This document shows positions 34,416 to 58,866 of a stretch of 64,000 nucleotides of DNA, piece after piece. Location of the stretch: positions 145,650 through 209,649 of the forward strand of contig NZ_SHKN01000004.1 of NCBI RefSeq assembly GCF_004217115.1, in the 5' to 3' direction. The stretch is from Ancylomarina subtilis (GTDB lineage Bacteria; Bacteroidota; Bacteroidia; Bacteroidales; Marinifilaceae). Below the pieces are notes generated by a model, which saw nothing but the letters and a program-made list of their open reading frames with translations, ran no database searches and was not told the origin of the DNA. Numbering within the stretch: position 1 is the stretch's first letter; each line of letters begins with the position of its first letter. Made by a program: the position numbers and the translations under genes.

Positions 34416-35264
34416 ATGCATCCTATCAGAAGTCAACTGCTTTTTATTTTAATCGTCCTGTCTTTATCTCATTCGGTATTGGGACAATCTACAAAGCTTA
34501 TGTCCTTTAATATTCGATACGATAACCAATGGGATATTGAAAACAATTGGATGCTCCGCAGAGACAAAATCACAAAACTTATAAATAGATACCAACCTTC
34601 TATCGTAGCAACTCAAGAAGCTCTGAGTAATCAAGTTAACTTTCTGGATAGTACATTAAGTAATTACAGCTATATTGGAATTGGGCGGGAAGATGGAAAA
34701 CAAAAAGGTGAATTCTGTGCCATTTTCTACAATCCTGCCAAATATAAAGTCATCAAACAAGCCACATTTTGGTTATCTGAAACTCCGGATATAGTATCTG
34801 TGGGATGGGATGCCGCTCTTGAACGTATTTGTACATACGCTCTTTTTGAAAATATTAATACAAAAGAACAAGTCTACATCTTTAATGCTCATTTCGATCA
34901 TCAGGGGAAAGTAGCACAAGAAAATTCTGCCCGCTTAATTTTAAAGAAAATCGAGGCAATTAATAAAGAAGATTTACCTGTCGTTTTAATGGGAGATTTA
35001 AACGTGACCCCGGAAGAAAAGACTATTACAATATTAAAAGAAGAGCTCACTGATGCCATCACGCTCTCTTCTTCCCCATTTTATGGCCCTAAAGGCACAT
35101 TCAATGCTTTCAAAAACGAACCTGTTACCTCGCGAATCGACTACTGTTTCGTTAAAAACATCAAAGTATTATCCTACTCCCATATCGATGACAGACTTGA
35201 TAATAACAAGCATATTTCAGACCATTATCCTGTTCTGGTTGAAATTGGGACAATCAAAAAATAG
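34416..35264 (+). CDS. Exported endonuclease/exonuclease/phosphatase (EEP) family hydrolase
   Basis: A 282-residue protein with signal peptide (ending VLGQS) and the EEP fold motifs: MSFNIRYDN (metal Asn), ATQEAL (metal Glu), NAHFDHQG (catalytic His), VVLMGDLNVTPEE (Asp/Asn) and the final SDHYPV (Asp-His). Such enzymes hydrolyse phosphodiester or phosphomonoester bonds. Placed first in an N-glycan/mannoside locus, it could remove phosphate or phosphodiester groups from phosphomannans or sugar phosphates, but a nuclease or other phosphatase role is equally allowed by sequence. The GH92 gene follows after 42 bases. Confidence 0.85.
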   Translation: MHPIRSQLLFILIVLSLSHSVLGQSTKLMSFNIRYDNQWDIENNWMLRRDKITKLINRYQPSIVATQEALSNQVNFLDSTLSNYSYIGIGREDGKQKGEFCAIFYNPAKYKVIKQATFWLSETPDIVSVGWDAALERICTYALFENINTKEQVYIFNAHFDHQGKVAQENSARLILKKIEAINKEDLPVVLMGDLNVTPEEKTITILKEELTDAITLSSSPFYGPKGTFNAFKNEPVTSRIDYCFVKNIKVLSYSHIDDRLDNNKHISDHYPVLVEIGTIKK

Positions 35265-35306
35265 ATTCAGACAACATCAAACTTACAAGCTATATACCAT
35301 TTTAAA

Positions 35307-37547
35307 ATGAACAAGTTGAACCTAAGTAAAATTCTTATTTCTGCATTTGTATTTAGTCTGGGATGCATATCCTGCCAAACAAAAGTGAATTATATTCCCA
35401 TTGATAACAATCCAATTCAATTTGTAGATCCTACAATTGGATCAGGAGGCCATGGACATGTTTTTATTGGAGCCAGTGTTCCCTTTGGTGCGGTTCAACT
35501 CGGTCCCAATAATATTACAATGGAATGGGATTGGTGCTCAGGTTATCACCATTCTGACACAACCATTATTGGGTTTTCACACACCCATTTAAGTGGAACC
35601 GGTATTGGAGATTTAGGTGATATTCTTATGATGCCAGTCACCTCAGTTAACGATTACAGCATTGAAAATTTAAGTGCAAAAACACGTCTTTCTGGTTTCT
35701 CACATAAAACAGAAAAAGCGCAAGCTTCCTATTATTCGGTTCATTTAAACAAATATAACATTGATGTAGAGCTTACAGCCAGCGAGCGCGTTGGCTTTCA
35801 GAAATACAACTACAAACAAAAAGGCAATTCACAAGTAATTATCGATTTGGAAAGAGGAATTGGTTGGGATAAACTTGACAAAGCCGAATTAATAAAACTT
35901 GACGACTACAGTATTGCTGGGTATCGTTTTTCAAAAGGCTGGTCAAAGGATCAACGCATCTATTTTGTGACAAAATTCTCGAAACGTATTAAAGATTTCA
36001 AACAAGTTGGTGAAAACGCCCAGTATACAGTTTTAAGTTTCGAAGGGAATGGTGAATTAATGCTCAAAACAGCCATTTCTCCTGTAAGTATAGAGGGTGC
36101 TATCAATAATCTGACAACTGAAATCCCTGAATGGGATTTTGAAGAAGTAGTTGCCAATGCCAACACCAAATGGAATAAGGAGCTCAACAAAATTCAGGTT
36201 AAGACAGCCAGTCAAAAAGATTTAAAGATTTTTTATACGGCTTGTTATCACAGTATGATTGCACCAAGTCTTTTCAACGATTCGAATAAAGACTACCGAG
36301 GAACAGACAAGAAAGTCTATAAAGACGTTGACTTTAACAATTACTCAGTCTTCTCTTTGTGGGATACTTACCGTGCAGCTCATCCCCTATTTACAATTAC
36401 ACAAAGCGATCGTGTTAGTGATATGATTAACTCCATGCTTAAAATTTATGAGCAACAAGGGAAACTCCCAGTTTGGCACCTAATGGGAAGTGAAACCAAC
36501 ACAATGGTCGGTTACTCTGCCGTTCCTGTTGTTGTTGATGCCTGTTTAAAAGGGATAAAAGGTATTGATTATGAATTAGCCTACGAGGCAGTAAAAACAA
36601 CGGCAACAGGTGATTTCGAGCCTGGAGTGAAAGAAATGATGACGCTGGGTTACATTCCTGCCGATGCCATGCACGAATCGGTTGCCTCAGCCTTGGAATA
36701 CGCCATCAGCGATTGGGCAATCGGCCAATTAGCAAAACGTTTAGACAAAGAAGATGACGCTATTTATTTTGCAAAAAGAGCAGAAGCCTACCGAAATTAT
36801 TTTGACTCGTCAGACAAATTCATGAAAGGTAAAATGAAAGATGGCAGCTGGAGAACGCCTTTTGACCCTTACTCTGCTCAACATCGGGTTAACGATTATT
36901 GCGAAGGGAATGCCTGGCAATATCTGTGGTTGGTTCCTCAAAACCCGGAAGGTTTAATTGAGCTTTTTGGTGGTGATAAACCATTTATCAGTAAGCTTGA
37001 TTCATTATTCTCAATCTCATCAGAATTGGAAGAAGGAGCTTCGAATGATATTACAGGACTTATTGGACAATATGCACATGGCAACGAGCCTTCACATCAC
37101 ACCACCTATTTGTATGCCTATGCAGGCGAGCAATACAAAACGGCTGATAAGGTTCGTTACATCATGAACGAACTTTACTCCGACAAAATTGATGGTTTGT
37201 GTGGCAACGAGGATTGTGGTCAAATGTCGGCCTGGTACATCATGTCATCCATGGGAATGTATCCTGTTAATCCAAGTAATGGTGCTTACGTTTTTGGCAG
37301 TCCATTATTCAACGAAGTAACAATCAACCTACCGGGTAATAAAAGCTTTAAAATTCTTGCTAAAAACAATAGCGACAAGAATATCTACATTCAATCAGTC
37401 AGTTTAAATGGTAAAGAGTATACAAAATCTTTCATTACGCATAAGGATATCGTAAAAGGTGGAACCCTGGTTTTTAAAATGGGATCAACACCCAACACCA
37501 ATTTTGGGAAAGCCAATCAAGACAGACCTCAATCAATTGTTTATTAG
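35307..37547 (+). CDS. GH92 alpha-mannosidase, lipoprotein (first of four)
   Basis: A 746-residue GH92 enzyme, a calcium-dependent inverting exo-alpha-mannosidase family. Lipobox LGCISCQTK with no acidic tract, so probably periplasmic. N-domain: FVDPTIGSGGHGHVFIGAS and GFSHTHLSGTGIGDLGD. Catalytic (alpha/alpha)6 domain: FSLWDTYRAAHPLF, YCEGNAWQYLW (catalytic acid Glu region, about 531-541), YAHGNEPSHHTTYLY and CGNEDCGQMSAWYIMSSMG (acidic residues of the base/calcium site, about 631). All key segments are intact. The closest relative in the window is the fourth GH92 (56524), suggesting related linkage preference. It is 14 bases before the next GH92, so co-transcription is likely. Confidence 0.95.
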   Translation: MNKLNLSKILISAFVFSLGCISCQTKVNYIPIDNNPIQFVDPTIGSGGHGHVFIGASVPFGAVQLGPNNITMEWDWCSGYHHSDTTIIGFSHTHLSGTGIGDLGDILMMPVTSVNDYSIENLSAKTRLSGFSHKTEKAQASYYSVHLNKYNIDVELTASERVGFQKYNYKQKGNSQVIIDLERGIGWDKLDKAELIKLDDYSIAGYRFSKGWSKDQRIYFVTKFSKRIKDFKQVGENAQYTVLSFEGNGELMLKTAISPVSIEGAINNLTTEIPEWDFEEVVANANTKWNKELNKIQVKTASQKDLKIFYTACYHSMIAPSLFNDSNKDYRGTDKKVYKDVDFNNYSVFSLWDTYRAAHPLFTITQSDRVSDMINSMLKIYEQQGKLPVWHLMGSETNTMVGYSAVPVVVDACLKGIKGIDYELAYEAVKTTATGDFEPGVKEMMTLGYIPADAMHESVASALEYAISDWAIGQLAKRLDKEDDAIYFAKRAEAYRNYFDSSDKFMKGKMKDGSWRTPFDPYSAQHRVNDYCEGNAWQYLWLVPQNPEGLIELFGGDKPFISKLDSLFSISSELEEGASNDITGLIGQYAHGNEPSHHTTYLYAYAGEQYKTADKVRYIMNELYSDKIDGLCGNEDCGQMSAWYIMSSMGMYPVNPSNGAYVFGSPLFNEVTINLPGNKSFKILAKNNSDKNIYIQSVSLNGKEYTKSFITHKDIVKGGTLVFKMGSTPNTNFGKANQDRPQSIVY

Positions 37548-37561
37548 ATTAAAATAGAACC

Positions 37562-39853
37562 ATGAATAAAATACAAATCTTAATAATCACCTTTGCGACA
37601 CTGCTAACAGCTTGTCAACCTGCAAAAGAAATTAATCAAAATTCGTCATTGGTTGATTGGGTCAATCCTCTAATGGGAACAGATTCTGATTATAGCCTAT
37701 CCAACGGGAATACCTACCCCGCAGTGGCTTTGCCCTGGGCCATGAATTTTTGGACCCCGCAAACAGGAAAAATGGGAGATGGCTGGTGTTATGCTTATGA
37801 TGCAAAAACCATTAGGGGAATCAAACAAACTCACCAACCCAGTCCATGGATCAATGACTATGCAGCCTTTTCATTTATGGCTGTAACGGGTGATTTAAAA
37901 TTTAAAGAAGACGAAAGAGCTTCGTGGTTTTCACACAAAGCTGAAATCTCGAAACCCAATTATTATAAAGTTTATCTTGCAGATTACGATGTAAGTGTTG
38001 AGCTAACGCCAACCGAAAGAGCCGCGATGTTCCAATTCACATTTCCTGAGAATAAAAATTCGTACATCCTTTTAGATGGATTTTTTAAAGGATCAGAGGT
38101 GAAAATTCTGCCTGAACAAAGAAAAATAATAGGTTACTGTCGTAATAACAGTGGTGGTGTTCCCGATAACTTCCACAACTATTTTGTTGCCGAGTTTGAT
38201 AAGGACTTTGAACTGACACACACTTGGAATGGCGATAACTTAAAACAGAACTCAAAAGAAGCAACAGGGGATCATGTTGGAGCAATCATCGGTTTCAAAA
38301 CAAAAAAAGGTGAACAAGTTCATGTCAAAGTTGCCTCATCCTTTATCAGCCCCGAGCAGGCACAATTGAATTTGGATCGTGAAATCGGGAAAAAGAATTT
38401 TGATCAGGTTTTAGAAGAAGCCAAACTGGCATGGAATAAAGAACTTTCACGTATTAAAGTTGAAGGCGGAACTGATGATCAGCTTAAAACATTTTACTCT
38501 TGCTTGTATCGCGTTTTATTATTCCCTCGTAAGTTTCACGAAATTGATGATCAAAATAAAGTTGTTCATTACAGTCCTTACAATGGTAAAGTACTACCCG
38601 GTTACATGTTTACTGATAATGGCTTTTGGGATACGTTCCGGGCTGTCTTTCCATTTTTTACCCTAATGTATCCTGATTTAAATGCTCAGATTATGGAAGG
38701 GTTGGCCAATACTTACAAAGAAAGCGGTTGGTTACCCGAGTGGGCAAGTCCTGGTCACAGAGGATGTATGATTGGATCGAACTCGGCATCACTAATTGCA
38801 GATTCATATTTAAAAGGAATTCGGGGGTATGACATTGAAACCCTTTACAAAGCCATTTTAAAAAATACCGAATCCTACAACAAAGACATTACTTCAGTCG
38901 GTCGTTTTGGGGCTGAATACTATAACAAACTCGGCTATGTTCCCTACAATGTAGGGGTAAATGAAAATACCGCAAGAACATTGGAATACGCCTATGCTGA
39001 TTTTTGTATCTGGAAGTTAGCGATTGAATTAAAACGTCCTCAAAAAGAGATTGATTTATTTGCCAAAAGAGCTCAGAATTTCAGAAACGTATTCGACTCC
39101 GAAACGGGTTTAATGCGTGGAAAAAATGAAGATGGCATATTCCAAACACCTTTTAATCCTTTAAAATGGGGTGATGCCTTTACAGAAGGAAACAGTTTGC
39201 ACTACACCTGGTCTGTTTTTCATGATGTAAAGGGCTTAATCGATTTAATGGGCGGTGAAGATAAATTCACATCAACTTTGGATGGCGTATTTAATATGCC
39301 TCCAAAATTCGATGCGTCATACTATGGTTTTACCATTCATGAAATCCGTGAGATGCAAATTGCGAATATGGGGAATTATGCACACGGAAATCAACCCATT
39401 CAGCACATGATCTACCTGTACAATTATGCAGGTCAACCCTGGAAAACACAATCTCATATCAGAGAAGTTATGGATAGGCTTTATACGCCACAACCTGATG
39501 GCTATTGTGGTGACGAAGACAATGGGCAGACTTCTGCATGGTATGTATTCAGTGCAATGGGATTTTATCCGGTTTGTCCTGGTAGAGACGAATATGTTTT
39601 TGGTTCTCCCCTATTCAAAAAAGTCAGTTTAAGCCTTACTAATGGTAAAACATTCACTATAAATTCAAGTGAAAACACCAAAGAAAATATTTACATAAAC
39701 AGCATCAAGCTGAATCAAAAAAATTATGAATTTAATTACATCAAGCATCAAGATATCCTAAAAGGGGGAACACTCGATTTTGAAATGTCAGAGCATCCTA
39801 ACTTGAAAAGAGGAACCGGGAAAAGTGCTTACCCATCATCAATGACAAACTAA
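37562..39853 (+). CDS. GH92 alpha-mannosidase, divergent lipoprotein (second of four)
   Basis: A 763-residue GH92 protein (lipobox LLTACQPAKE, likely periplasmic). It differs from the first and fourth copies: the N-domain has IKQTHQPSPWINDYAAFSFM instead of the FSHTHLSGTG loop, the acid segment reads FTEGNSLHYTW (no WQY), the HGNEPSHH segment reads HGNQPIQH, and the last motif is CGDEDNGQTSAWYVFSAMG. The general acid Glu and the late acidic residues remain, so it should be active, but the changes around the +1 subsite suggest a different linkage than its neighbours. Which linkage cannot be decided here. A strong hairpin follows it. Confidence 0.93.
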   Translation: MNKIQILIITFATLLTACQPAKEINQNSSLVDWVNPLMGTDSDYSLSNGNTYPAVALPWAMNFWTPQTGKMGDGWCYAYDAKTIRGIKQTHQPSPWINDYAAFSFMAVTGDLKFKEDERASWFSHKAEISKPNYYKVYLADYDVSVELTPTERAAMFQFTFPENKNSYILLDGFFKGSEVKILPEQRKIIGYCRNNSGGVPDNFHNYFVAEFDKDFELTHTWNGDNLKQNSKEATGDHVGAIIGFKTKKGEQVHVKVASSFISPEQAQLNLDREIGKKNFDQVLEEAKLAWNKELSRIKVEGGTDDQLKTFYSCLYRVLLFPRKFHEIDDQNKVVHYSPYNGKVLPGYMFTDNGFWDTFRAVFPFFTLMYPDLNAQIMEGLANTYKESGWLPEWASPGHRGCMIGSNSASLIADSYLKGIRGYDIETLYKAILKNTESYNKDITSVGRFGAEYYNKLGYVPYNVGVNENTARTLEYAYADFCIWKLAIELKRPQKEIDLFAKRAQNFRNVFDSETGLMRGKNEDGIFQTPFNPLKWGDAFTEGNSLHYTWSVFHDVKGLIDLMGGEDKFTSTLDGVFNMPPKFDASYYGFTIHEIREMQIANMGNYAHGNQPIQHMIYLYNYAGQPWKTQSHIREVMDRLYTPQPDGYCGDEDNGQTSAWYVFSAMGFYPVCPGRDEYVFGSPLFKKVSLSLTNGKTFTINSSENTKENIYINSIKLNQKNYEFNYIKHQDILKGGTLDFEMSEHPNLKRGTGKSAYPSSMTN

Positions 39854-39921: not shown

Positions 39922-41592
39922 ATGAAAATAAAGTCCCTATTATTAATATTCTGTTTAATCAGTTTTCTTTTCAATTCGGTTGAAGGAAAGAATAACAAAA
40001 AAGAGAAGTTAGTCAAAATCACATACCAACAATACAACAGAGGTAACCTTATTCCTGATAAGGAAATCGTACTAACTTGTGCAAATGGATTTGTAAAATT
40101 ATCGAACCCCTCTAAAATAGAGAGCTTTTTCATCGATTACAATTCCAAAGCTGTCGTTAAAGTTCTTAATATCGATTCAATACAATACAAGCAAAGAAAC
40201 CCATTTTCGGAATTAGCCGAAGCTAAAGAAACTGATGAAAAGCAAACCATACTGGGCTACGAATGTAAAAAGGCCAGCTTTTTAATTTTCTCCAATAGAA
40301 TTAACGTTTGGTACACCACTGAAACCAAATTTAAAGCATCACCCTCGCTATCAGCAATTATTGAAAATGGACTAATTCTTAAATATGAGGCAAATGGCAA
40401 TTATACCATTCAGGCAAAATCGATTGATTTTGAAAAAGCTACCATGCAATACCCTCAAGAAAATCTGCCTGAAATAAATCAAGCGGAATATCGTGAACTG
40501 ATTATTAAATCAAGATATACAACCATTCCGGTATTCGATAAAGAACAAATTAATTTTCAAGGCGTAATAGAAAACCCAACAGAAGAAATATGCAACCACA
40601 CCTATCGTTTTTCAAAAGGGACCGTTATCATGAAAAAGATAAAAATGCCTAAAATGAGTCCGGGAGGAAATGTATTTGCAAAACTCACCAATTGGTCGAA
40701 TGGAGATGCTTATGATAGAACCGGTTGTGTCTTTACTCTTGCCGATGATAATAAGAAATCGATACTGACTGCCTTAAAAAATGGCTTAGATCAATTGCCC
40801 GTTTATTTAGACAAGCGAGGCAATGAATATCAAGGTGTTATTAGCACTGAAAATTATACCGTACCTACTGAATTGATGCGATTTTTCACTTCGTTTGGCG
40901 TGGGCTATTTTAATAACAAACGCCCTATTAATAGCTATAATTGGCAAGACTCTGTAGTCTATAAACAGGACATCACCGAACTAATCCCTGACAATAAGAA
41001 TGAAATTTGGATTGGTGTTTTTATTGGCAACTATGATAAAGGGGGGCATAAAGTGAGTTTAGAACTGGATTACTACCCTCCTTTTGAGAACTCTTCGGTT
41101 AAAGAAAAATTTATTAAGCCCTTGTTTTACACACTAAACATCATGGAAGCTCAAGGACAAAATTATGGTCGAATGTTTAAAAACGACACGCTAACAATGA
41201 CCTTTGATATAACAGATGACATCAAAAATCCACAACTATTATTTACAAGCACAGGTCATGGTGGTTGGGGCAATGGGGATGAATTCGTTCCAAAACTCAA
41301 TCAAGTTTTTATTGATGATGAATTGATTTTCAAACATATCCCCTGGCGATGCGATTGCAGCACTTATCGCATGTCGAATCCTGCTTCAGGAAACTTTGGC
41401 AATGGTCTATCAAGTAGTGATTTAAGTCGTTCAAATTGGTGCCCGGCCACCTTAACGCAACCTTTTTATATTCCATTAGCCAACTTAAAAAAAGGAAAAC
41501 ATATTATCAAGGTCGCTATTGATCAAGGCGATGACGAAGGTTCCAGTTTTAATCACTGGAGTGTTTCCGGAATCCTGGTTGGAAACAAGTAA
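39922..41592 (+). CDS. PNGase F-type N-glycan amidase with GLPGLI-like N-terminus
   Basis: A 556-residue exported protein (signal peptide ending SVEGK). Residues about 25-190 look like a GLPGLI domain (TILGYECKKASFLI, INVWYTTE, NGLILKYEA). The rest resembles the two jelly-roll domains of PNGase F, which cuts the amide bond between asparagine and N-glycan GlcNAc. Landmarks: DAYDRTGCVFTL (about 261-272; the Asp fits catalytic Asp60 of Elizabethkingia PNGase F, in EWDRYANV), GHGGWGNGDEF (about 446-456; Glu fits Glu206), WRCDCSTYRMSN, RSNWCPATLTQPF and the ending FNHWSVSGILVG. The segment holding Glu118 is not clearly conserved. The mannosidase genes around it support N-glycan release. Activity is inferred, not proven. 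Confidence 0.8.
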   Translation: MKIKSLLLIFCLISFLFNSVEGKNNKKEKLVKITYQQYNRGNLIPDKEIVLTCANGFVKLSNPSKIESFFIDYNSKAVVKVLNIDSIQYKQRNPFSELAEAKETDEKQTILGYECKKASFLIFSNRINVWYTTETKFKASPSLSAIIENGLILKYEANGNYTIQAKSIDFEKATMQYPQENLPEINQAEYRELIIKSRYTTIPVFDKEQINFQGVIENPTEEICNHTYRFSKGTVIMKKIKMPKMSPGGNVFAKLTNWSNGDAYDRTGCVFTLADDNKKSILTALKNGLDQLPVYLDKRGNEYQGVISTENYTVPTELMRFFTSFGVGYFNNKRPINSYNWQDSVVYKQDITELIPDNKNEIWIGVFIGNYDKGGHKVSLELDYYPPFENSSVKEKFIKPLFYTLNIMEAQGQNYGRMFKNDTLTMTFDITDDIKNPQLLFTSTGHGGWGNGDEFVPKLNQVFIDDELIFKHIPWRCDCSTYRMSNPASGNFGNGLSSSDLSRSNWCPATLTQPFYIPLANLKKGKHIIKVAIDQGDDEGSSFNHWSVSGILVGNK

Positions 41593-41681
41593 ACATACAG
41601 AATCTAAAATAAGATTTCATAGTCTGTTGAATTTTAAATAAAAAATTCAAATCAAAACAGATATATCAAAAAACGGATAAC

Positions 41682-48737: not shown

Positions 48738-49706
48738 ATGAAATCTAAATTGATAATCCCCTGGGAAAACAGACCCGATGGCTCCAATGATATCATGTGG
48801 CGTTATTCTAAAAATCCTGTTGTTGGAAGATATGATATCCCTTCATCAAATAGCATATTTAACAGTGCTGTAGTTCCATTTGAAGACGGATTTGCCGGAG
48901 TATTCCGATGTGATAATAAATCCGTTCAGATGAACATCTTTGCAGGCTTTAGTAAGGATGGTATTCATTGGGAAATTAATCACGATCCCATCGAAATGGT
49001 CGCCGGGAACACCTCGATGATCGACTCCGATTACAAATACGATCCGCGTGTGTGTTGGATTGAAGACCGCTATTGGGTAACCTGGTGCAATGGGTATCAC
49101 GGACCAACAATTGGAATTGCCTACACTTACGATTTTAAAACATTTCATCAATGTGAAAATGCATTCTTACCATTCAACCGTAATGGGGTTTTATTTCCGG
49201 AAAAAATTGATGGTAAATATGCCATGTTAAGTCGTCCCAGCGATAATGGACATACACCTTTCGGCGACATCTACATCAGCTACAGCCCGGATATGAAATA
49301 CTGGGGCGAGCACCGCTGTGTCATGAAAGTTGCTGACTTCACTAAAAGTGCCTGGCAGTGTACAAAAATTGGAGCGGGATCTGTACCGATTAAAACCGCA
49401 GAAGGCTGGTTGCTTTTTTATCATGGGGTAATCAATACCTGTAATGGCTTTCGTTACTCAATGGGTGCAGCCTTGTTGGATCTGGAAAATCCGGACAAAG
49501 TATTGTATCGTTCGCAGGATTACTTGTTAGCACCTGCTGCTCCCTATGAGCTAGCAGGCGATGTGCCTAATGTGGTCTTCCCTTGCGCAGCACTTACTGA
49601 TGACGATAAGGTTACGGTTTATTATGGAGCTGCCGATACAGTCGTAGGCATATCCTTTGGTTACATTTCGGAAATCATCGAACATTTAAAACAAAAATCA
49701 CTTTAA
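48738..49706 (+). CDS. GH130 mannosyl-GlcNAc phosphorylase-type enzyme
   Basis: A 322-residue cytoplasmic protein (no signal peptide). GH130 enzymes cleave beta-mannosides with phosphate to give mannose-1-phosphate. Segments [74 protein letters not shown] and [13 protein letters not shown] strongly resemble what I remember of subfamily GH130_2, whose members act on Man-beta-1,4-GlcNAc and Man-beta-1,4-chitobiose of N-glycan cores. The phosphate-pocket and Asp residues ([16 protein letters not shown]) are intact. It should finish the core in the cytoplasm after MFS import. It ends the tight part of the operon; a 199-base gap with an inverted repeat follows. Confidence 0.93.
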
Positions 49707-49905: not shown

Positions 49906-52539
49906 ATGATAAAAAAATTAATATTTATCCTCCTGATTTGTATCAGTTTTTCTTGTAGCCAGGAAGAGGAACATTTCCTTAAGGATACCAATTATAGAAA
50001 CGAGATTATATCAAAATTTGAATCTCGAAAACTGATCTTTCAAAATCGTAATTCAGAATTATTGGATGTCTTTGACAAACAGCTTACTTTAAAAGAGAAA
50101 GAAGCCCTAATGTTTCTATACGCCTATATGCCGTTAAACGATTTAGCTGATTATTCGGGAAAATATTTTCTGCAACAGGTTCAATATGCTTTTAAAACCC
50201 AAAATGAATTTCCTTGGGGGAAAAAGGTCTCCGAAGATAACTTCCGCCATTTTGTATTACCCTATCGGGTCAATAACGAAAATTTAGATTCTGCCAGACT
50301 CGTATTTTTCAACGAATTAAAAGTCCGGTTAAAAGGCTTATCAATGCATGAAGCTGCCTTAGAAATCAATCACTGGTGTCACGAAAAGGTTACCTATATC
50401 GGTTCAGACATAAGAACTTCTGCCCCACTAGCTACCGTTAAAAATGCCAAAGGACGCTGTGGTGAGGAATCGACATTTACAGTTGCAGCCTACCGCGCAG
50501 CCGGCATACCTGCACGTCAGTGCTACACGCCTAGATGGGCACACTGCGACGACAACCATGCCTGGGTTGAAATCTGTGTAGATGGCGTTTGGCATTATGT
50601 AGGAGCCTGTGAGCCTGAAGCTGAATTGAATCTGGGATGGTTTTCTCAATCAGCAAAAAAAGCCATGTTGGTACATACCAAAGTTTTTGGGCAATACAAG
50701 GGGAATGAAAGAGTAAGCTATCAAACCGAAAATTTCTCAGAATTAAATTTATTGGAGAAATACACAAAAACAGAAGAAGTAACAATTCACGTACAAGATG
50801 AAAATGGTAAACCAATTTCAAATGCTGACGTGCATTATTCGGTTCTAAACTATTCTGAATTCTATCCCCTTATCACAAAAAAAACAAATACGGATGGGAT
50901 TAGTCAGTTTACAACAGGCATTGGCAGTCTTTTTATTTGGGCGAGTAAGGATGGTTTATTTGCTTTTAAGGATATCGACCTGACTCAAACAAAAACACTG
51001 AAATTAACTCTTTCAAAACAAAATTCACGTTCGAGCGAAAATTATTACTTCGATCTAAATCCATCCAAATATGGAGGTTTAAGCCGTTCGACACCACACA
51101 ATGCCGAGAATGATAAAAAACTACAGAACGAAGATAAAATTCGAAAAGCCTACGAAAACACCTTTATATCAGATGAAGCCATCAAAGAATTTGCTGCAAA
51201 ACAAAACATGGATGAGCAGCTAAGCCTGGAATATCTAAAGAAATCAAGAGGGAATTATGCTGAGATTATCAGCTTTATTAAACAAGTTCCAGCTGAAAAA
51301 AGAGACTTGATTTTCCCTTTACTTGCTGCCGTATCCGATAAGGATTTACACGATACGCCGGCATCTGTTTTCCTGGATCACATCAATAATTCGTCTCAAA
51401 AAATTACCGATAAGAATCTATTCAACCAATACGTTCTGAATCCAAGAATCAAAAATGAAATTCTATCTCCATATAAAACTTCTATTTTAAAGGATCTAAG
51501 CTCCTCTTTTAGTCAGGATTCTTCACGAAATCCGCAACAAATTGAAAAGTGGATAATCGAAAATATTCAGATTTCGGATCATGATAATTATTACAAAACT
51601 CCTTTAACACCAATAGGAAGTCTTAAGCTTAAAATTACTGACCCAAGCTCCAGAGATATTCTTTTTGTCGCAATTTGTCGCACTTATGGGATTCCTGCAC
51701 GCATAGAACCTGCAACACTCAAAGCTCAGTATTATTCAGAAAACAACTGGATAAATGTCAATTTTAACAGCAAACAGGAATCTCCCAATACCTTTGGCTA
51801 TATCAAACTTAATAACACATCAAAGGGATTCGAAATTGATCCTGAATATTATAAAAACTTCACAATTGCCCGAATTGAAAATGGTGACTATCAAAGTTTA
51901 GAATTCGATTTCATGAAAAAACTTTCAAGTTTCGATTCTAAAATTCGTTTGCAAACGGGACATTATATGCTTACAACTGCAAATCGAAAACTGAATGGTG
52001 GTGTCTTATCAAAACTCTCGTTTTTCGAAGTTAAAGCAAACACAACAACACCCGTTGATGTTGAAGTCATGAAAATATCTTTTAAGAACCAGGTTTATTG
52101 CAATTTAGATCTCAACAAAAACGAGACGCTGAAAAATTCATTTAAAGAAAAGTTTTTGATTTTAGGCTGGCTGGCACCGGATAAGGAACCCACAAAACAT
52201 GCTTTAGTCGATTTTAACAAACTGAAAGCTGAATTCGAAAACACAGACGTTTCTATTGTCTTTATAATTCCTCAAGCCAAAAAAACTGAATCTTTTGATA
52301 AACAAAATCAAAAGCTTCCCAAGCAATGTTTGTTTATTGAAAATGAAGATTTGATCACTCAATTGGAAACCAAGACAGGCCAATCCTTACAAAACGAATA
52401 TCCTGTTTTCACGATTATCAAACAAAATGGTGATGTGGTTTATCTAAACAAAGGCTATAAAATTGATATTGGACCCGAAATCCTAAATGTCATCAGAGAA
52501 CTTGATCAAACGCCAGAACATTGTCTTTTCACAAAATAA
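49906..52539 (+). CDS. Transglutaminase-fold lipoprotein with PNGase-like triad
   Basis: An 877-residue lipoprotein: signal peptide with lipobox ISFSC, then CSQEEEH, acidic enough for surface export. A transglutaminase-like core (about 140-245) has Cys185 in GRCGEEST, His218 in DDNHAWVE and an acidic partner in GACEPE (236-238). The GRCGE / DDNHAWVE / CEPE pattern resembles that of the cytoplasmic eukaryotic PNGase (Png1: GRCGEW, DHVWTE, DPCE). Next are a carboxypeptidase-like Ig domain (about 288-375), a long middle region, a second transglutaminase-like segment (about 550-660; ICRTYGIPAR, no catalytic Cys) and a thioredoxin-like C-terminal domain without CxxC. The substrate is unknown; a protease, amidase or glycopeptide hydrolase are options. 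Confidence 0.8.
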   Translation: MIKKLIFILLICISFSCSQEEEHFLKDTNYRNEIISKFESRKLIFQNRNSELLDVFDKQLTLKEKEALMFLYAYMPLNDLADYSGKYFLQQVQYAFKTQNEFPWGKKVSEDNFRHFVLPYRVNNENLDSARLVFFNELKVRLKGLSMHEAALEINHWCHEKVTYIGSDIRTSAPLATVKNAKGRCGEESTFTVAAYRAAGIPARQCYTPRWAHCDDNHAWVEICVDGVWHYVGACEPEAELNLGWFSQSAKKAMLVHTKVFGQYKGNERVSYQTENFSELNLLEKYTKTEEVTIHVQDENGKPISNADVHYSVLNYSEFYPLITKKTNTDGISQFTTGIGSLFIWASKDGLFAFKDIDLTQTKTLKLTLSKQNSRSSENYYFDLNPSKYGGLSRSTPHNAENDKKLQNEDKIRKAYENTFISDEAIKEFAAKQNMDEQLSLEYLKKSRGNYAEIISFIKQVPAEKRDLIFPLLAAVSDKDLHDTPASVFLDHINNSSQKITDKNLFNQYVLNPRIKNEILSPYKTSILKDLSSSFSQDSSRNPQQIEKWIIENIQISDHDNYYKTPLTPIGSLKLKITDPSSRDILFVAICRTYGIPARIEPATLKAQYYSENNWINVNFNSKQESPNTFGYIKLNNTSKGFEIDPEYYKNFTIARIENGDYQSLEFDFMKKLSSFDSKIRLQTGHYMLTTANRKLNGGVLSKLSFFEVKANTTTPVDVEVMKISFKNQVYCNLDLNKNETLKNSFKEKFLILGWLAPDKEPTKHALVDFNKLKAEFENTDVSIVFIIPQAKKTESFDKQNQKLPKQCLFIENEDLITQLETKTGQSLQNEYPVFTIIKQNGDVVYLNKGYKIDIGPEILNVIRELDQTPEHCLFTK

Positions 52540-52553
52540 AGCACGACATCATA

Positions 52554-53660
52554 ATGAAAAATTATATCATCTTATCAAGCCTGTTTTTACTTATATCACT
52601 ATCGTGTCAGAACAAAAAAACAAAAGAAACATCACAACTCATTGATGTTTCCAATAGCATTGTTATCCCTAAACACTACATCGTTTCTAAAACAAACGAA
52701 CCAATCGTCATTGATGGCGAAGCGAATGAATTAAGCTGGGAATCAGCTCAATTCACAAGCTCTTTTATCGATATTGAAGGGATAAAAACACCTAAATATG
52801 ATACCAAAGTAAAAATGCTTTGGGATACAAGCTACCTTTATGTCTATGCGCAAATAGAAGAACCTCATATCTGGGGAAACCTAAAACAAAGAGACACGGT
52901 TATATTCTACAATAATGATTTTGAAATCTTTATAGACCCATCCGGAACGGCAACCAATTATATTGAAATCGAGATTAATGCTCTGGGAACCGTTTGGGAT
53001 TTAGCGCTAGATAAACCTTATCGGGTTGGAGGGAAGGCCAACGACAACTGGAATATTGAGGGTTTAAAATCAGCTATTCATATTCAAGGAACTTTAAACA
53101 AAGCCAATGATACGGATACACAATGGTCTGTTGAATTTGCCATCCCTCTGCAAAAAATTGCCGATCAGAAACATCTGAATAAAAACATCCCCATTGATGG
53201 TGAGCAGTGGCGAATCAACTTCTCGCGTGTGGAATGGGAACATGATTTAATCGATGGAAAATATCAACGAAAAAAAGTAAACGAAAAGTATTTAAGCGAA
53301 TACAATTGGGTTTGGAGTCCTCAAAGAGTTATCAATATGCACGAACCTGAAAAATGGGCTTATCTCCAATTTACCAAGCAAGCAAAAACCGATTCAGTAG
53401 TATTTAATACCGATAAAGATCTTCTGGTAAAACAAATCGCCTATGCACTATTCAGGGCTATCAGATTTGGACAATTGAACGATTTATTAAAACAACCAGC
53501 AGGCTATACACAAATCCTTAATGCCAAATTTGATGAGAACAAAGTCATCAAAACCACATACAAAAAAACAAACACTGGCTTTACAGTAGAGATCAATAAT
53601 ACTGATACAAATAACACCTTCATCATAAACGAAGAAGGTGTTCTAAATTCAAAAAAATAA
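52554..53660 (+). CDS. CBM9-like carbohydrate-binding lipoprotein
   Basis: About 368 residues. The start ATG 52554 gives a lipoprotein signal (LLISLSCQNKK); the earlier frame start at 52521 overlaps the previous stop. A CBM9/DOMON-like beta sandwich spans about 40-275: PIVIDGEANELSWESAQFT, MLWDTSYLYVYAQIEEPHIW, FEIFIDPSGT and EFAIPLQKI. Comparable Bacteroidota proteins are called carbohydrate-binding family 9-like and often sit beside exo-glycosidases. No catalytic motif is seen; the conserved acidic and Trp residues (WGN, WDLA) suggest sugar binding. It follows the transglutaminase-fold gene by 14 bases and precedes ManA by 3. Confidence 0.8.
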   Translation: MKNYIILSSLFLLISLSCQNKKTKETSQLIDVSNSIVIPKHYIVSKTNEPIVIDGEANELSWESAQFTSSFIDIEGIKTPKYDTKVKMLWDTSYLYVYAQIEEPHIWGNLKQRDTVIFYNNDFEIFIDPSGTATNYIEIEINALGTVWDLALDKPYRVGGKANDNWNIEGLKSAIHIQGTLNKANDTDTQWSVEFAIPLQKIADQKHLNKNIPIDGEQWRINFSRVEWEHDLIDGKYQRKKVNEKYLSEYNWVWSPQRVINMHEPEKWAYLQFTKQAKTDSVVFNTDKDLLVKQIAYALFRAIRFGQLNDLLKQPAGYTQILNAKFDENKVIKTTYKKTNTGFTVEINNTDTNNTFIINEEGVLNSKK

Positions 53661-54641: not shown

Positions 54642-54686
54642 ACTCTTAATTTATAAGTCCCGATACAATCGGATAAAATTATAAAA

Positions 54687-55769
54687 ATGAAAAATTTATT
54701 TATTCTCATAATCGGACTGGTTCTTATTTCATGTAACCAGACAAACAAGGAAAATCAGAATCAAACTGATACAAGATTTACCTTTTCAACATGGATACAT
54801 GCTGATAAAACGTTTGATAAGACAGTTTGGAAAAACAGGTTCAAACACTTTCGTGAACTTGGAATCTCTGAAGTTTTGGTTGGAGGTAATCACGAACATC
54901 TGGCGGATATTGTTGCATTGGCAACAAATTTCAAAATTAAAATCCATGCCTGGATGTGGACACTTAACCGCCCCAATGATACAATTGCAAACAAACACCC
55001 GGAATGGTATGCAGTCAATCGAAATGGTCAAAATTCGCTTGAATACAGAGCTTACGTCGACTATTACCAATGGTTAAGTCCTTTTCATCCGGAAGCACGT
55101 GAATATATCAAAAACAATGTTAGGAAATTGGCTAAAATAAAGGGACTTGCGTCCATCCACTTGGACTATGTGAGGTATGTAGATGTAATTTTGGGAGCAG
55201 ATCTCCAACCCCAATACAATTTGATACAAAGTACCGAAATGCCCGAATACGATTTTGGCTACCATCCAATAGCTCGCGAAGGTTTTAAAAAACTGTTCGA
55301 CAAAGATCCTATGGAGCTTGAACATCCTGAATTAAGTACCGAATGGCGTCAGTACAGATTGAATGCCATTACAACTTTAGTAAACGAACTTGTTGAAATT
55401 GCACATTCAGAAAATCAAAAGATGACTGCTGCCGTATTTCCATTTCCTGAAATGGCTCGTCAAATGGTCAGACAAGCCTGGAACAACTGGAATTTGGACG
55501 CCGCCTATCCGATGCTTTACCAAAACTTCTATCGAGAAAATATTAACTGGATTGGCTTTGCAACAGAACAAGGCGTGAGAGATGTTAATTTTCCGATTAT
55601 TGCGGGTCTGTACAGCCCTGGCTTAAGAGAACCTGCTGATCTTGAAAAGGCCATTCGACTTGCAAAAGAAAAAGGAGCTAAAGGAATTTCTATATTTAGC
55701 GCTGATGATTTAACAGAGGAGCAGCAAGCCGTTTTCATCAAGTTAAAAACGGAACTCTTAAACCTATAA
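54687..55769 (+). CDS. TIM-barrel lipoprotein of GHL10/DUF4015-like type, function unknown
   Basis: A 360-residue lipoprotein (lipobox LVLISCNQT, non-acidic, likely periplasmic). Its body reads as a glycosidase-like (beta/alpha)8 barrel: FSTWIHADKTFDKTVWKNRF, HAWMWTLNRPND, EYIKNNVRKLAKIKGLASIH followed by LDYVRYVD, MTAAVFPFPEMARQMV, DAAYPMLYQNFYRENI and GLYSPGLREPADLEKA. The IHLDYVRY strand (about 159-166) with its Asp is typical of the GHL10/DUF4015 group. I do not recognise a characterised relative. It sits between ManA and CutC in the N-glycan locus, which has no recognisable enzyme for the GlcNAc-beta-1,4-GlcNAc bond. A glycosidase role is plausible but unproven; a pseudo-enzyme is also possible. 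Confidence 0.75.
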   Translation: MKNLFILIIGLVLISCNQTNKENQNQTDTRFTFSTWIHADKTFDKTVWKNRFKHFRELGISEVLVGGNHEHLADIVALATNFKIKIHAWMWTLNRPNDTIANKHPEWYAVNRNGQNSLEYRAYVDYYQWLSPFHPEAREYIKNNVRKLAKIKGLASIHLDYVRYVDVILGADLQPQYNLIQSTEMPEYDFGYHPIAREGFKKLFDKDPMELEHPELSTEWRQYRLNAITTLVNELVEIAHSENQKMTAAVFPFPEMARQMVRQAWNNWNLDAAYPMLYQNFYRENINWIGFATEQGVRDVNFPIIAGLYSPGLREPADLEKAIRLAKEKGAKGISIFSADDLTEEQQAVFIKLKTELLNL

Positions 55770-55782
55770 ACCACATTGCCTG

Positions 55783-56403
55783 ATGTACATCAAAGAAGCC
55801 TGTGTCGAAAATTTGAACGAAGCAATAAAAGCGGAACAATTGGGCGCTGACCGAATCGAACTATGCGAAAATCTGAATGAAGGTGGGACCACACCTTCAT
55901 TTGAATTAATTCGTCAGGTAAAAGCAAATCTACACATTCCAATTCGAGTCATGATTCGGCCCAGAGCTGGTGATTTTTGCTATTCTGAAAATGAAATTGA
56001 AATAATGCTTTCACAAATTGAGTATTGCAAGAACTTAAAGCTTGAAGCTGTCGTATTTGGAATTCTGAATGCAGACAAAACTTTGAATATTGCTTCAATA
56101 ACAAAACTAGCTCAAGCTGCATCCCCTTTGAAAGTTGTTATTCACAAGGCAATAGATGAAACACCCAATATGATTCGGGCTTGTCAACAACTAATACAAA
56201 CCCGAAAAATATCAACCATTCTAACTTCAGGAGGTAAAGACTCTGCTGAAGAAGGTTTATCTGTCTTAAAAACGCTGATTGACTTATCTGCAGATAAAAT
56301 TGAAATAATGCCAGCAGGTAAAATCACACATAGCAATATTGAAAAGCTGCACAATAATCTTAAGGCAAAAGCCTATCATGGAAGACGAATTGTTGAGGAA
56401 TAA
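55783..56403 (+). CDS. cutC: CutC-family TIM-barrel protein
   Basis: A 206-residue protein of the CutC family (KEACVENLNEAIKAEQLGAD, RIELCENLNEGGTTPS, RPRAGDFCYSENEI, FGILNAD, VIHKAIDETPN, ILTSGGKDSAEEG). The family is usually annotated as copper homeostasis, but evidence for copper binding is weak and its biochemical role is unsettled. It has no signal peptide and is somewhat shorter than E. coli CutC, ending in YHGRRIVEE. Located 13 bases after the TIM-barrel lipoprotein and before a GH92, it lies inside a sugar-catabolic operon, which argues for a carbohydrate-linked role (inference). Confidence 0.88.
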   Translation: MYIKEACVENLNEAIKAEQLGADRIELCENLNEGGTTPSFELIRQVKANLHIPIRVMIRPRAGDFCYSENEIEIMLSQIEYCKNLKLEAVVFGILNADKTLNIASITKLAQAASPLKVVIHKAIDETPNMIRACQQLIQTRKISTILTSGGKDSAEEGLSVLKTLIDLSADKIEIMPAGKITHSNIEKLHNNLKAKAYHGRRIVEE

Positions 56404-56456
56404 AAAATTAAGATATCCCCCATCTGTCTCAAGAAAAATAACTAAACAACCCGTAT

Positions 56457-56491: not shown

Positions 56492-56523
56492 TACAAACAC
56501 ATTAAAACTCTAAATCAACAACT

Positions 56524-58866
56524 ATGAAGTATCTGTCTTATTTTCTCATTGCTACACTAAGCATATTGGGATATACAAAACTTAAGGCTCAGGATAAAGA
56601 TTTAACACAATTTGTCGATCCCTTTATCGGGACACAAGAAATGGGACACACATTTCCAGGCGCTTGTGCCCCTTTCGGCATGATCCAATTAAGCCCCGAT
56701 ACCGATAGCGTCCTGTTTTTAACTAATGGCAAATACAATAAAGATGTCTACCGCTATTGTGCAGGTTACCAATACACCGACAAATCTATTGTTGGCTTCA
56801 GTCACACCCATTTAAGCGGAACTGGACACTCCGACTTAGGAGATTTTTTAATTATGCCAACAATTGGCAAAGTACAATACAACCCGGGAACGATAGAGAA
56901 TACAAAAAATGGCTACCGATCGATGTATCGTAAAGAGACTGAAAAAGCAGAACCTGGCTACTATACAGTAGAATTAGATGATTATAACATTAAAGCAGAG
57001 TTAACAGCCACCCAACGTGTCGGTTTTCATCAATACACATTTCCTAAAACGGATGATGCCCATATTATTTTAGACCTTAATCATGGGATTTACAATTACG
57101 ATGGAAAAGTACTCTGGTCTACTCTCAGGGTTGAAAACGATACTTTAGTAACAGGCTATCGAATAACTCGCGGTTGGGCTCGCACCAACTACCTATATTT
57201 TGCAATTAGCTTCTCTAAACCAATTAAGAATTATGGTTGTCAAAATGATGAAAAAGTCATTTATAATGGCTTCTGGAGAAAGTTCGATGAGACCAAGAAT
57301 TTCCCGGAAATGGCGGGTAAAGCATTAACTGCCAATTTCGATTTTTCAACTGAGAAAAATGAACAGATAAAAATCAAATTTGCTCTTTCAGCAGTGAGTA
57401 CCGAAGGGGCTCTAAAGAACCTAAAGGCAGAAATTCCGCATTTCGATTTTGATCAAACAAGAGCAGAAACAAAGGCCGCTTGGAATGATGAATTAAGCAA
57501 GATTGCTATAAGTGCGTCAAATGAAAAAAAGACAACATTTTACACATCTCTTTATCATTCCTTTATCAACCCGGTAGTATATATGGATGTGGATGGAAAA
57601 TACAGAGGCCTGGACCACAACATTCATCAGGCTGAAGACTTTACCAACTATACTGTGTTTTCATTATGGGATACCTACAGAGCCCAACACCCTTTGCTTA
57701 CAATTATTCAACCCAAACGTGCCACAGATATGATTAACTCCATGCTGGCTCATTATGAACAAAGTGTCCATAAAATTTTACCGATATGGAGCCACTTTGG
57801 AAATGAAAACTGGTGTATGATTGGTTATCATGCTGTACCTGTTATTGCAGATGCCTGGGTAAATGGCTTACGCGGATTTGATCCAAAAAAAGCACTGGAA
57901 GCCTGTCTTGCAAGTGCAAACTATAACAAATATGATGGAATTGGAGATTACAAAAAATACGATTACATTCCTCACGAAACCAGCAGAGTTGGAGCTTCTA
58001 TCACTCTTGAATATGCTTACGATGATTATACCATAGCTCAACTAGCCAAATCATTGGGTGAATCTGACATCGAAAAAGAATACCTGAAACGTTCCGAGAA
58101 CTGGCAAAACCTTTTTGATGATACATCCGGTTATATCAGAGCCAAAACAAAAGACGGCAAATGGGTTGCACCTTTCGATCCTTTGGATACGCACGCTGCA
58201 GGTTTCATTGAAGGAAACTCATGGAATTACTCCTTATACATTCCACAAAATGTAAGTGGCCTAATTAAAAAAATGGGTGGTGAAAATCGTTTTTCTCAAC
58301 ATTTGGATTCATTATTTACTATGTACATTCCGGATAAATATTTCGAACATAACGAGGATATTACAAGAGAAGGAATAATGGGAGGCTATGTTCACGGGAA
58401 TGAGCCTAGTCATCATGTACCTTATTTATACAACTGGGCAGGTAAACCATGGAAAACTCAAGAGCGCATTCACCAAATAATGGACACAAAATATTTGAAT
58501 AAACCGGATGGTTTATGCGGGAACGATGATTGTGGTCAGATGTCCGCATGGTATATTTTTTCATCATTAGGCTTTTATCCTGTCTGCCCCGGTTCCGGTC
58601 AATATGTAATTGGTGCGCCTTCAATTAAGGAAGCAAAAATGAATCTTGAAAATGGGAAAACATTTGTAATCAAAGTACTCAATTACTCTGATAAGAACAA
58701 ATATATCCACTCTGTCACTCTAAATGGACAAGTTTGGAATAAAAGCTATATCAATCATAAAGATATTGTAACAGGCGGTGAATTGGTATTCAAAATGAGC
58801 AAACATCCGAATAAGAAATGGGCTACTGAACCTGACTCAAAACCCAAATCAACAGGCAGCAAATAA
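56524..58866 (+). CDS. GH92 alpha-mannosidase (fourth of four)
   Basis: A 780-residue GH92 enzyme with a type I signal peptide (ending KLKAQD). N-domain: FVDPFIGTQEMGHTFPGACA and GFSHTHLSGTGHSDLGDFLI. Catalytic domain: FSLWDTYRAQHPLL, FIEGNSWNYSLYI (acid Glu), YVHGNEPSHHVPYLYNWAG and CGNDDCGQMSAWYIFSSLG. It is closest in motif pattern to the first copy (35307), and the HGNEPSHH and GQMSAW segments are intact. As the last gene of the run it is followed by a strong bidirectional terminator. Natural substrates are likely alpha-mannosides of high-mannose glycans; precise linkage is unknown. Confidence 0.95.
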   Translation: MKYLSYFLIATLSILGYTKLKAQDKDLTQFVDPFIGTQEMGHTFPGACAPFGMIQLSPDTDSVLFLTNGKYNKDVYRYCAGYQYTDKSIVGFSHTHLSGTGHSDLGDFLIMPTIGKVQYNPGTIENTKNGYRSMYRKETEKAEPGYYTVELDDYNIKAELTATQRVGFHQYTFPKTDDAHIILDLNHGIYNYDGKVLWSTLRVENDTLVTGYRITRGWARTNYLYFAISFSKPIKNYGCQNDEKVIYNGFWRKFDETKNFPEMAGKALTANFDFSTEKNEQIKIKFALSAVSTEGALKNLKAEIPHFDFDQTRAETKAAWNDELSKIAISASNEKKTTFYTSLYHSFINPVVYMDVDGKYRGLDHNIHQAEDFTNYTVFSLWDTYRAQHPLLTIIQPKRATDMINSMLAHYEQSVHKILPIWSHFGNENWCMIGYHAVPVIADAWVNGLRGFDPKKALEACLASANYNKYDGIGDYKKYDYIPHETSRVGASITLEYAYDDYTIAQLAKSLGESDIEKEYLKRSENWQNLFDDTSGYIRAKTKDGKWVAPFDPLDTHAAGFIEGNSWNYSLYIPQNVSGLIKKMGGENRFSQHLDSLFTMYIPDKYFEHNEDITREGIMGGYVHGNEPSHHVPYLYNWAGKPWKTQERIHQIMDTKYLNKPDGLCGNDDCGQMSAWYIFSSLGFYPVCPGSGQYVIGAPSIKEAKMNLENGKTFVIKVLNYSDKNKYIHSVTLNGQVWNKSYINHKDIVTGGELVFKMSKHPNKKWATEPDSKPKSTGSK

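What the first reader, a model, noticed from the sequence alone, without database searches (positions are those of the whole stretch)
34416..58866. Fifteen-gene N-glycan degradation locus built around a PNGase F-type amidase
One strand carries four GH92, GH125, GH97, GH130_2-like, an MFS carrier, ManA, an EEP hydrolase, a PNGase F-like amidase, a transglutaminase-fold lipoprotein, a CBM9 protein, a TIM-barrel protein and CutC. The set covers release, trimming, import and phosphorolysis of high-mannose N-glycans. No GH18/GH85 ENGase and no GH20 or GH84 hexosaminidase is present, so release seems to rely on amidase chemistry, and the chitobiose step is open.
Basis: partly seen in the sequence, partly recalled or inferred. 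Interest (0 to 1): 0.75.

Follow-up and report, generated by a model that had tools for sequence, protein, structure and literature searches.

The report
PNGase-led N-glycan locus, modular
A bacterium close to Marinifilum and Ancylomarina carries a 32-kb gene cluster that likely frees sugar chains from glycoproteins with a type II PNGase and would dismantle them down to the core; across five copies of the cluster the core genes stay while hexosaminidase, fucosidase and glucosidase genes come and go.

Summary
In detail: 15 same-strand genes at 34416-58866 carry the stated families. The unit is drawn wrongly. It starts at a LacI regulator (24197), includes MFS, ROK kinase, SusC, SusD and a LamG lipoprotein, and ends at CutC (56403). 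The last GH92 belongs to a different PUL: DNA homology to sister species G397 stops at 56395; homology to another PUL in G396 starts at 56427. The PNGase is type II (NBL domain, Gly369/Glu409). GH97 is of the inverting alpha-glucosidase class, one GH92 is BT3990-like, GH130 is closest to Uhgb_MP. Among 34 family genomes searched for the PNGase, 5 (own included) carry the locus, each with LacI, MFS, ROK, SusC/D, three GH92, GH125 and GH130. GH20 sits beside the PNGase in three, GH29 lies in one; the window copy has neither. Its genome has one GH20 and one GH3 elsewhere, both apparently exported; no GH18 or GH29 was found. So the chitobiose step is only partly open. Predicted pathway: amidase release, trimming, import, phosphorolysis of Man-GlcNAc2. 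Nothing was assayed. It is a variant of known Bacteroides PNGase/GH92/GH130 loci, with unusually clear module exchange.

The parts
24197..25195 (+). LacI-family regulator, first gene of the unit
   Evidence: PF00356; conserved at the same place in G397 and three Marinifilum genomes, 68-85% identity
25199..26353 (+). MFS sugar permease (GluP/FucP/NagP-like)
   Evidence: PF07690; best NCBIfam gluP 107 bits, below its cut-off; 84-92% in relatives
26354..27469 (+). ROK sugar kinase
   Evidence: PF00480; 73-78% in relatives; sugar specificity not resolved
27634..30792 (+). SusC-type outer-membrane transporter; first ~150 residues nearer G397, remainder nearer Marinifilum
   Evidence: PF13715/PF07715; piecewise identity
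30813..32372 (+). SusD-type glycan-binding lipoprotein
   Evidence: PF12741/PF12771; 70-71% in Marinifilum; G397 has an unlike one
32397..34298 (+). LamG/DUF4972 lipoprotein, likely surface glycan-binding protein
   Evidence: PF13385, two stretches; 67-69% in Marinifilum, none in the G397 locus
34416..35264 (+). Endonuclease/exonuclease/phosphatase-fold hydrolase, leader by eye
   Evidence: PF03372; among the five copies only in window and G397
35307..37547 (+). GH92 (a), lipoprotein by eye; likely alpha-mannosidase other than alpha-1,2
   Evidence: PF07971 615 bits; nearest solved 6f8z and 7zgm; BT3990 Trp88 and His584/Glu585 equivalents not seen in the alignment
37562..39853 (+). GH92 (b), lipoprotein by eye; BT3990-like, predicted alpha-1,2-mannosidase
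   Evidence: 1152 bits to BT3990 (2wvx), Trp and His-Glu of the +1 site kept
39922..41592 (+). Type II PNGase with NBL domain
   Evidence: PF22252+PF09112+PF09113; PNGF-II 4r4z 452 bits; Gly369/Glu409
41593..41681 (+). 89-bp gap at the slot where GH20 sits in G397, M. flexuosum and M. sp. D737
41682..43112 (+). GH125, predicted exo-alpha-1,6-mannosidase, Tat-like leader by eye
   Evidence: PF06824 569 bits
43123..45156 (+). GH97 lipoprotein of the inverting alpha-glucosidase class
   Evidence: 5hq4 564 bits, SusB 484, retaining alpha-galactosidase 5e1q 213
45162..47396 (+). GH92 (c), leader by eye
   Evidence: PF07971 568 bits; nearest solved 6f8z
47429..48709 (+). MFS permease, AmpG-like; Marinifilum has an SSS-type symporter in this slot
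   Evidence: TIGR00901 129 bits, below cut-off 350
48738..49706 (+). GH130, Uhgb_MP-like mannosyl-chitobiose phosphorylase (predicted), no leader by eye
   Evidence: 4udg 504.5 bits; 87-90% in the four relatives
49906..52539 (+). Transglutaminase-fold lipoprotein
   Evidence: PF01841; invariant Cys185, His218 and Glu236 in 33 aligned sequences; in the G397 locus but not the Marinifilum loci
52521..53660 (+). CBM9-like lipoprotein
   Evidence: PF06452
53664..54641 (+). ManA, mannose-6-phosphate isomerase
   Evidence: TIGR00218 158 bits, cut-off 116
54687..55769 (+). GHL10-type TIM-barrel lipoprotein, candidate for the chitobiose bond
   Evidence: PF02638; invariant Asp160, Glu215, Glu255, Asp271 in 32 aligned sequences; fold
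55783..56403 (+). CutC, last gene of the unit
   Evidence: PF03932 185 bits; next gene in G397 is the Rce1-like flank
56396..56426 (.). Junction between two homology blocks (G397 PNGase locus / G396 other PUL)
   Evidence: blastn
56524..58866 (+). GH92 (d), left over from a different PUL; not part of the PNGase unit
   Evidence: 89% protein identity to a gene of G396's unlike PUL at the same site

Best explanation
Window 24197-56403 is a SusC/SusD-type utilization locus that likely takes up N-glycans or glycopeptides, is predicted to cut the glycan from asparagine with a type II PNGase, and would strip it with alpha-glucosidase (GH97) and alpha-mannosidases (three GH92, GH125) to a Man-GlcNAc2 core that GH130 would split by phosphorolysis. 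Shown by sequence: the gene set, the type II residues, the enzyme classes, and conservation of the core genes in 5 genomes. Inferred: SusC/SusD/LamG capture; release by the PNGase outside the cytoplasm; GH97 removing glucose caps; GH92b cutting alpha-1,2 and GH92a/c other mannose linkages; GH125 alpha-1,6; import of Man-GlcNAc2 or Man-GlcNAc by the AmpG-like permease; GH130 giving mannose-1-phosphate; free mannose entering by the second MFS, then ROK kinase and ManA. The chitobiose bond would be cut by the genome's other GH20, or by the GHL10 lipoprotein. Shown by comparison: GH20, GH29, GH65, GH97, EEP, the SusC/D cassette, the inner-membrane transporter and the right-hand block differ between copies, and the site between YibE/F and Rce1-like genes holds an unlike PUL in a sister species.
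For: Pfam/NCBIfam assignments. PNGF-II homology and type II residues in 33 of 37 sequences including the window, Asp and no NBL in the other 4. BT3990 match with Trp88 and His584/Glu585 kept. GH97 class. Uhgb_MP match at full length, an enzyme described as mannosyl-chitobiose phosphorylase (PMC8950772 passages). Same core genes in order in G397, G401, G413 and M. flexuosum. No GH18 match in the genome. Sharp DNA junction at 56396-56426. PNGase and GHL10, or PNGase and transglutaminase, homologues are listed with equal contig lengths (92264, 95797; 1377589), which suggests linkage in further genomes.
Against: No activity, expression or localisation data; leaders were judged by eye. The five copies were found by searching for the PNGase, so its presence in all five is by construction. 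In 31 other PNGase genomes of the order whose flanks were read, no GH92, GH125 or GH130 of this kind lies nearby (13 of the 31 have less than 20 kb on one side or both), so PNGase-PUL linkage is not general. GHL10, CBM9 and the transglutaminase protein are common outside N-glycan loci. The permease and kinase matches are below curated cut-offs. No GH29 was found in the genome although the PNGase is of the fucose-tolerant type.
Confidence: 0.75

Rival explanations
1. The locus serves mainly plant-, insect- or alga-type N-glycans with core alpha-1,3-fucose rather than plain high-mannose glycans; GH29 and GH20 were lost here and the fucosylated core is left over or handed on.
For: Type II PNGase residues; same-genus G397 has GH29 (312 bits) and GH20 in the locus; [quoted passage not shown]
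Against: No GH29 match in the window genome (control rang in 3 of 14); GH97 present, which fits glucose caps of high-mannose precursors; EM type II PNGase also acts on mammalian glycans.
Confidence: 0.2
2. An alpha-mannan (fungal) locus in which the PNGase is incidental.
For: GH92, GH125 and GH130 together resemble yeast-mannan gene sets (recalled).
Against: No GH76, GH38 or GH99 match in 39 of 40 window ORFs; GH130 matches Uhgb_MP at 505 bits against 151 or less for the 1,2-mannoside enzymes; the PNGase keeps its invariant residues.
Confidence: 0.05
3. One reading: one 15-gene N-glycan operon at 34416-58866.
For: One strand, mostly short gaps.
Against: SusC/D and regulator upstream are conserved with the unit; GH92d continues DNA homology with a different PUL and is absent after CutC in G397.
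Confidence: 0.05
4. The right-hand block (transglutaminase protein, CBM9, ManA, GHL10, CutC) is a general housekeeping or peptidoglycan-related group next to the N-glycan locus and takes no part in it.
For: Transglutaminase protein in 129 of 393 order genomes, own included; CBM9-GHL10 adjacent in 7 of 12 fetched genomes, none with PNGase, GH92, GH125 or GH130 matches in the stretch read; CutC near the transglutaminase gene in 8 of 20; 199-bp gap before the block; absent from the Marinifilum loci.
Against: Same five-gene order in G397 directly after GH130; two of the 20 transglutaminase neighbourhoods hold GH92 or GH125 plus GH130 (G119, G257); ManA fits mannose use.
Confidence: 0.4

Closest known systems
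Group 2 PNGase loci of Bacteroides (B. helcogenes, B. vulgatus, B. massiliensis; PMC9522356, passages)
   Same: Type II PNGase, NBL domain in most; neighbours in some species include SusC/D, GH92, GH130, GH29 and GH3; periplasmic release proposed
   Different: Here GH125, GH97 and a LacI-MFS-ROK cassette are in the same locus (not mentioned in the passages I read); no GH3 or GH29 in the window copy
B. thetaiotaomicron high-mannose N-glycan PUL (BT3983-BT3994; PMC7021837 and PMC11180146, passages)
   Same: SusC/D, surface binding protein, BT3990-type GH92 plus two more GH92
   Different: Release by GH18 ENGase at the surface and ECF-sigma control there; type II PNGase and LacI regulator here; GH125 and GH130 are in the locus here
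Uhgb_MP, GH130 mannosyl-chitobiose phosphorylase (4UDG)
   Same: Full-length match, 504.5 bits
   Different: Not assayed here
PNGF-II of Elizabethkingia meningoseptica (4R4Z)
   Same: NBL, N and C domains, Gly and Glu at the fucose-pocket positions
   Different: Its genomic neighbourhood was not examined
N-glycan locus of Cutibacterium acnes (PMC6160142, passages)
   Same: Strain-variable loss of GH20 and GH18 from an N-glycan locus
   Different: Cytoplasmic GH38/GH5_18/GH20 route; its authors found no PNGase

Membership tests
Type II (group 2) PNGase | NBL domain before the catalytic domain | tested here: met
   PF22252 70.8 bits, cut-off 27.6; aligned in 33 of 37
Type II (group 2) PNGase | Gly in place of the Glu/Asp that blocks alpha-1,3-fucose, with compensating Glu | tested here: met
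   Gly369/Glu409; matched to PNGF-II G380/E419 through the alignment with a constant numbering offset of 29 that I inferred
Type II (group 2) PNGase | Release of core alpha-1,3-fucosylated N-glycans | not testable with these tools
   needs enzyme assay
N-glycan PUL (SusC/D type) | SusC/SusD pair, surface binding protein and regulator with the enzymes | tested here: met
N-glycan PUL (SusC/D type) | Induction by N-glycans | not testable with these tools
   needs transcriptomics
GH130 Uhgb_MP group | Full-length similarity to Uhgb_MP above other GH130 types | tested here: met
   505 bits against 434 (5ayd) and 151 or less for 1,2-mannoside enzymes; BT1033 has no listed structure and was not compared
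GH92 BT3990 type (alpha-1,2) | Trp88 and His584/Glu585 in the +1 site | tested here: met
   GH92b keeps them; not seen in GH92a, c and d
GH97 inverting alpha-glucosidase class | Closer to GH97 alpha-glucosidases than to retaining alpha-galactosidases | tested here: met
   564/484 bits against 213
BT3987-type high-mannose PUL | GH18 endo-beta-N-acetylglucosaminidase | tested here: not met
   none in 39 window ORFs, none in the genome
AmpG permease | Score above the curated TIGR00901 cut-off | tested here: not met
   129 bits against 350; called AmpG-like only
GH20 hexosaminidase for chitobiose | GH20 gene in the genome | tested here: met
   one, C4:5878-6819, lipoprotein by eye, 32% to the Marinifilum locus GH20; activity on chitobiose untested
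GHL10 glycosidases (DigH and Cwp19 as members: recalled) | PF02638 domain | tested here: met
   53 bits, cut-off 27.9
GHL10 glycosidases (DigH and Cwp19 as members: recalled) | Fold closest to a peptidoglycan-cutting member | tested here: inconclusive

The most novel reading that the evidence does not exclude
The GHL10 lipoprotein (54687-55769) is a new kind of N-glycan core enzyme that cuts the GlcNAc-GlcNAc bond outside the cytoplasm. It would replace the lost GH20 and the absent GH18 endoglycosidase, and would hand Man-GlcNAc to the AmpG-like permease and GH130.
Probability: 0.12. Interest if true: 0.75.

Novelty: new variant of a known kind. Interest (0 to 1): 0.5.

Why it matters
It gives a compact, self-contained amidase-first route for N-glycan use outside the gut Bacteroides, in a group linked to decay of animal and plant detritus in the deep sea (PMC9765461, start of abstract). 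Five natural versions differ by a few genes each (GH20, GH29, GH65, GH97, SusC/D, transporter), so each accessory enzyme can be matched to a substrate feature. The YibE/F to Rce1-like site suggests one PUL replacing another, with a boundary between homology blocks resolved to 31 bp. GHL10 makes the chitobiose question testable.

Tried and rejected
Phosphomannan idea: I first took GNQPIQH in GH92b as loss of the general acid and thought of CcMan5-type decapping plus an EEP phosphatase. The alignment showed the same letters in BT3990, and the real acid Glu is kept in all four GH92. Rejected.

Transglutaminase protein as a second, NGLY1-like amidase: Cys-His-Glu is invariant in 33 aligned sequences, but the rows listed by the fold searches match its Ig-like piece (3e8v and others) and a thioredoxin-like end; no PNG1 row was among the 50 listed, which tests little because the catalytic domain was not searched alone. 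The gene is in 129 of 393 genomes. Left open, not claimed.

CutC as a GlcNAc-asparagine enzyme: a recalled idea; the 15 papers listed of 2,165 show nothing on it by title. Promoter-like sites did not exceed shuffles (47 against 56.9 and 59 against 57.9) and terminator-like sites were within about one sd (19 against 14.5, sd 4.2; 10 against 13.2). The GH84 search is uninformative because its control was silent; GH85 was not searched genome-wide. A phylum-wide GHL10 search did not complete.

Not-in-print check: the listings (5 of 5 papers; 12 of 70; 5 of 5) show, by title and abstract start, no paper on a PNGase-led locus in Marinifilaceae; most subscription papers are not held.
Full report
Observation. 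Of 40 window ORFs of at least 120 aa, 39 were scanned; none is GH18, GH85, GH20 or GH84.

Organism. Nearest named proteins are from Ancylomarina (PNGase 83%; transglutaminase protein 72%), then Marinifilum (PNGase 73%) and Labilibaculum (71%).

Extent of the unit. Upstream, on the same strand, lie LacI, MFS, ROK, SusC, SusD and a LamG lipoprotein (24197-34298). The PNGase was searched in 58 relatives, of which 34 including the window's own belong to its family. Full-length type II PNGase occurs in 5 of those 34: the window genome, same-genus G397 (1 of 4 same-genus relatives), and Marinifilum G401, G413 and G422 (types). G415 has only the group 1 type. All five copies share, in order, LacI, MFS1, ROK, SusC/SusD, GH92a, GH92b, PNGase, GH125, GH92c and GH130; that the PNGase is in all five is by construction of the search. 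The three Marinifilum copies stop at GH130 in the stretches read. G397 continues with transglutaminase protein, CBM9, ManA, GHL10 and CutC, then the Rce1-like flank.

The foreign GH92. YibE/F and Rce1-like genes flank the site in all four same-genus relatives. The distance between them is 33.8 kb in G397 and 34.9 kb in the window, but about 21 kb in G395, G396 and G398, which have no PNGase match. A 12-kb stretch from the middle of the G396 interval (L197) holds another SusC, another SusD type, two GH92 and two BSP-peptidase proteins with lipoprotein leaders by eye. One of those GH92 is 89% identical to the window's GH92d. DNA homology of the window to the G397 locus stops at 56395 (apart from a 159-base match between GH92 paralogues), and to G396 starts at 56427. 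GH92d is thus best read as a remnant of a different PUL, and the PNGase unit ends at CutC. That the site exchanges whole PULs is an inference from one partly read interval.

PNGase type. The protein has the NBL domain and matches PNGF-II over 524 residues. In 37 sequences aligned, 33 (window included) have NBL, Gly and Glu at the type II positions; the other 4 have no NBL and Asp. The passages of PMC9522356 that I read tie the Gly to tolerance of core alpha-1,3-fucose. That paper reports a group 2 enzyme that needs this fucose for optimal activity and notes that EMTypeII also acts on mammalian glycans.

Trimming enzymes. GH92b is close to BT3990 and keeps the three +1-site residues named in PMC5930347 (passages). 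They are not seen in GH92a, c and d, so other linkages are likely. All four keep the general acid Glu. GH97 belongs with the alpha-glucosidases. A GH65, a family with a known bacterial alpha-1,2-glucosidase (PMC8626586 abstract start and passages), sits next to GH97 in all three Marinifilum copies. Both fit glucose caps of Glc1-3Man9 glycans, by inference; the same paper's enzyme was studied on dextran-type sugars.

Core and cytoplasm. GH130 matches Uhgb_MP, described as mannosyl-chitobiose phosphorylase (PMC8950772 passages). The transporter slot before GH130 is AmpG-like MFS in window and G397, SSS-like in Marinifilum; the SSS label is mine from the sequence. GH130, ROK, ManA and CutC have no leader by eye; leaders were judged by eye only.

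Chitobiose. GH20 lies between PNGase and GH125 in G397, G413 and M. flexuosum, but not in the window or G401. Two losses from an ancestral slot is the simplest reading, not a proof. The window genome has one GH20 elsewhere, close to 4c7d and 1hp4 (544 and 538 bits; Streptomyces origin recalled), and one GH3 with a leader by eye; no GH18. An exo-acting exported GH20 cannot reach the chitobiose while the beta-mannose is on (established mechanism), and no cytoplasmic hexosaminidase was recognised, so the step is narrowed but not closed. GHL10 is a candidate. Its family includes DigH, which cuts peptide-free peptidoglycan glycans (PMC12288456 passages; that DigH is GHL10/YddW is recalled, though one source names P0122 'lipoprotein YddW'). 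Its model resembles Cwp19, GH164, GH42 and PgaB barrels. Against it: GHL10 has relatives in 35 of 393 order genomes, own included; of the 12 others read, it lies beside CBM9 in 7 and near no PNGase, GH92, GH125 or GH130 in any; and the Marinifilum loci lack it, those genomes holding only a 34-35% relative elsewhere.

How general. In 393 genomes of the order, 34 have a PNGase match, own included. Flanks of up to 20 kb were read for 31 of the 33 others; none has a GH92, GH125 or GH130 match to the window genes nearby, three have a GH97 relative, one of these also an EEP, and one has SusC/D. In 13 of the 31, less than 20 kb was available or taken on at least one side; G011 and G339 were not read.

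Mosaic. SusC is nearer G397 in its first 150 residues (67 and 72% against 52 and 67% to G413) and nearer Marinifilum in residues 151-1050 (61-88% against 17-45%), so the SusC barrel, SusD and LamG were probably exchanged as a cassette in one lineage.

Verdict. A real, well-supported N-glycan locus, a new variant of a known kind. Its most useful features are natural gene-by-gene variants and a sharp exchange boundary. Function is predicted throughout; nothing was assayed.

Noticed in passing
1287-12229: A separate starch-type PUL: SusC, SusD, SusE/SusF-like proteins and a GH13 protein with a Por secretion tail.
   Followed up: no
L197 (G396), local 2-2801: Two BSP-type peptidase proteins beside two GH92 and a SusC/D pair: possibly a second glycoprotein-directed PUL at the same site.
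   Followed up: partly
L190:15892-17226 (G397): GH29 fucosidase between LacI and MFS1 of the same-genus PNGase locus; no GH29 found in the window genome.
   Followed up: yes
L187 (G397 C14): The same-genus genome also holds a group 1 PNGase (Asp, no NBL) elsewhere.
   Followed up: partly
L179 local 15502-18048 (M. flexuosum): 849-aa opposite-strand gene with weak kelch-like matches between ROK and SusC in all three Marinifilum copies.
   Followed up: partly
loci L154-L173: A CutC gene lies near the transglutaminase-fold lipoprotein gene in 8 of 20 genomes read; reason unknown.
   Followed up: partly
47429-48709: Unlike inner-membrane transporters (AmpG-like MFS, SSS-like) occupy the same slot before GH130 in different genera.
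   Followed up: partly
63512-63586: tRNA-Pro(ggg) downstream of the region.
   Followed up: no
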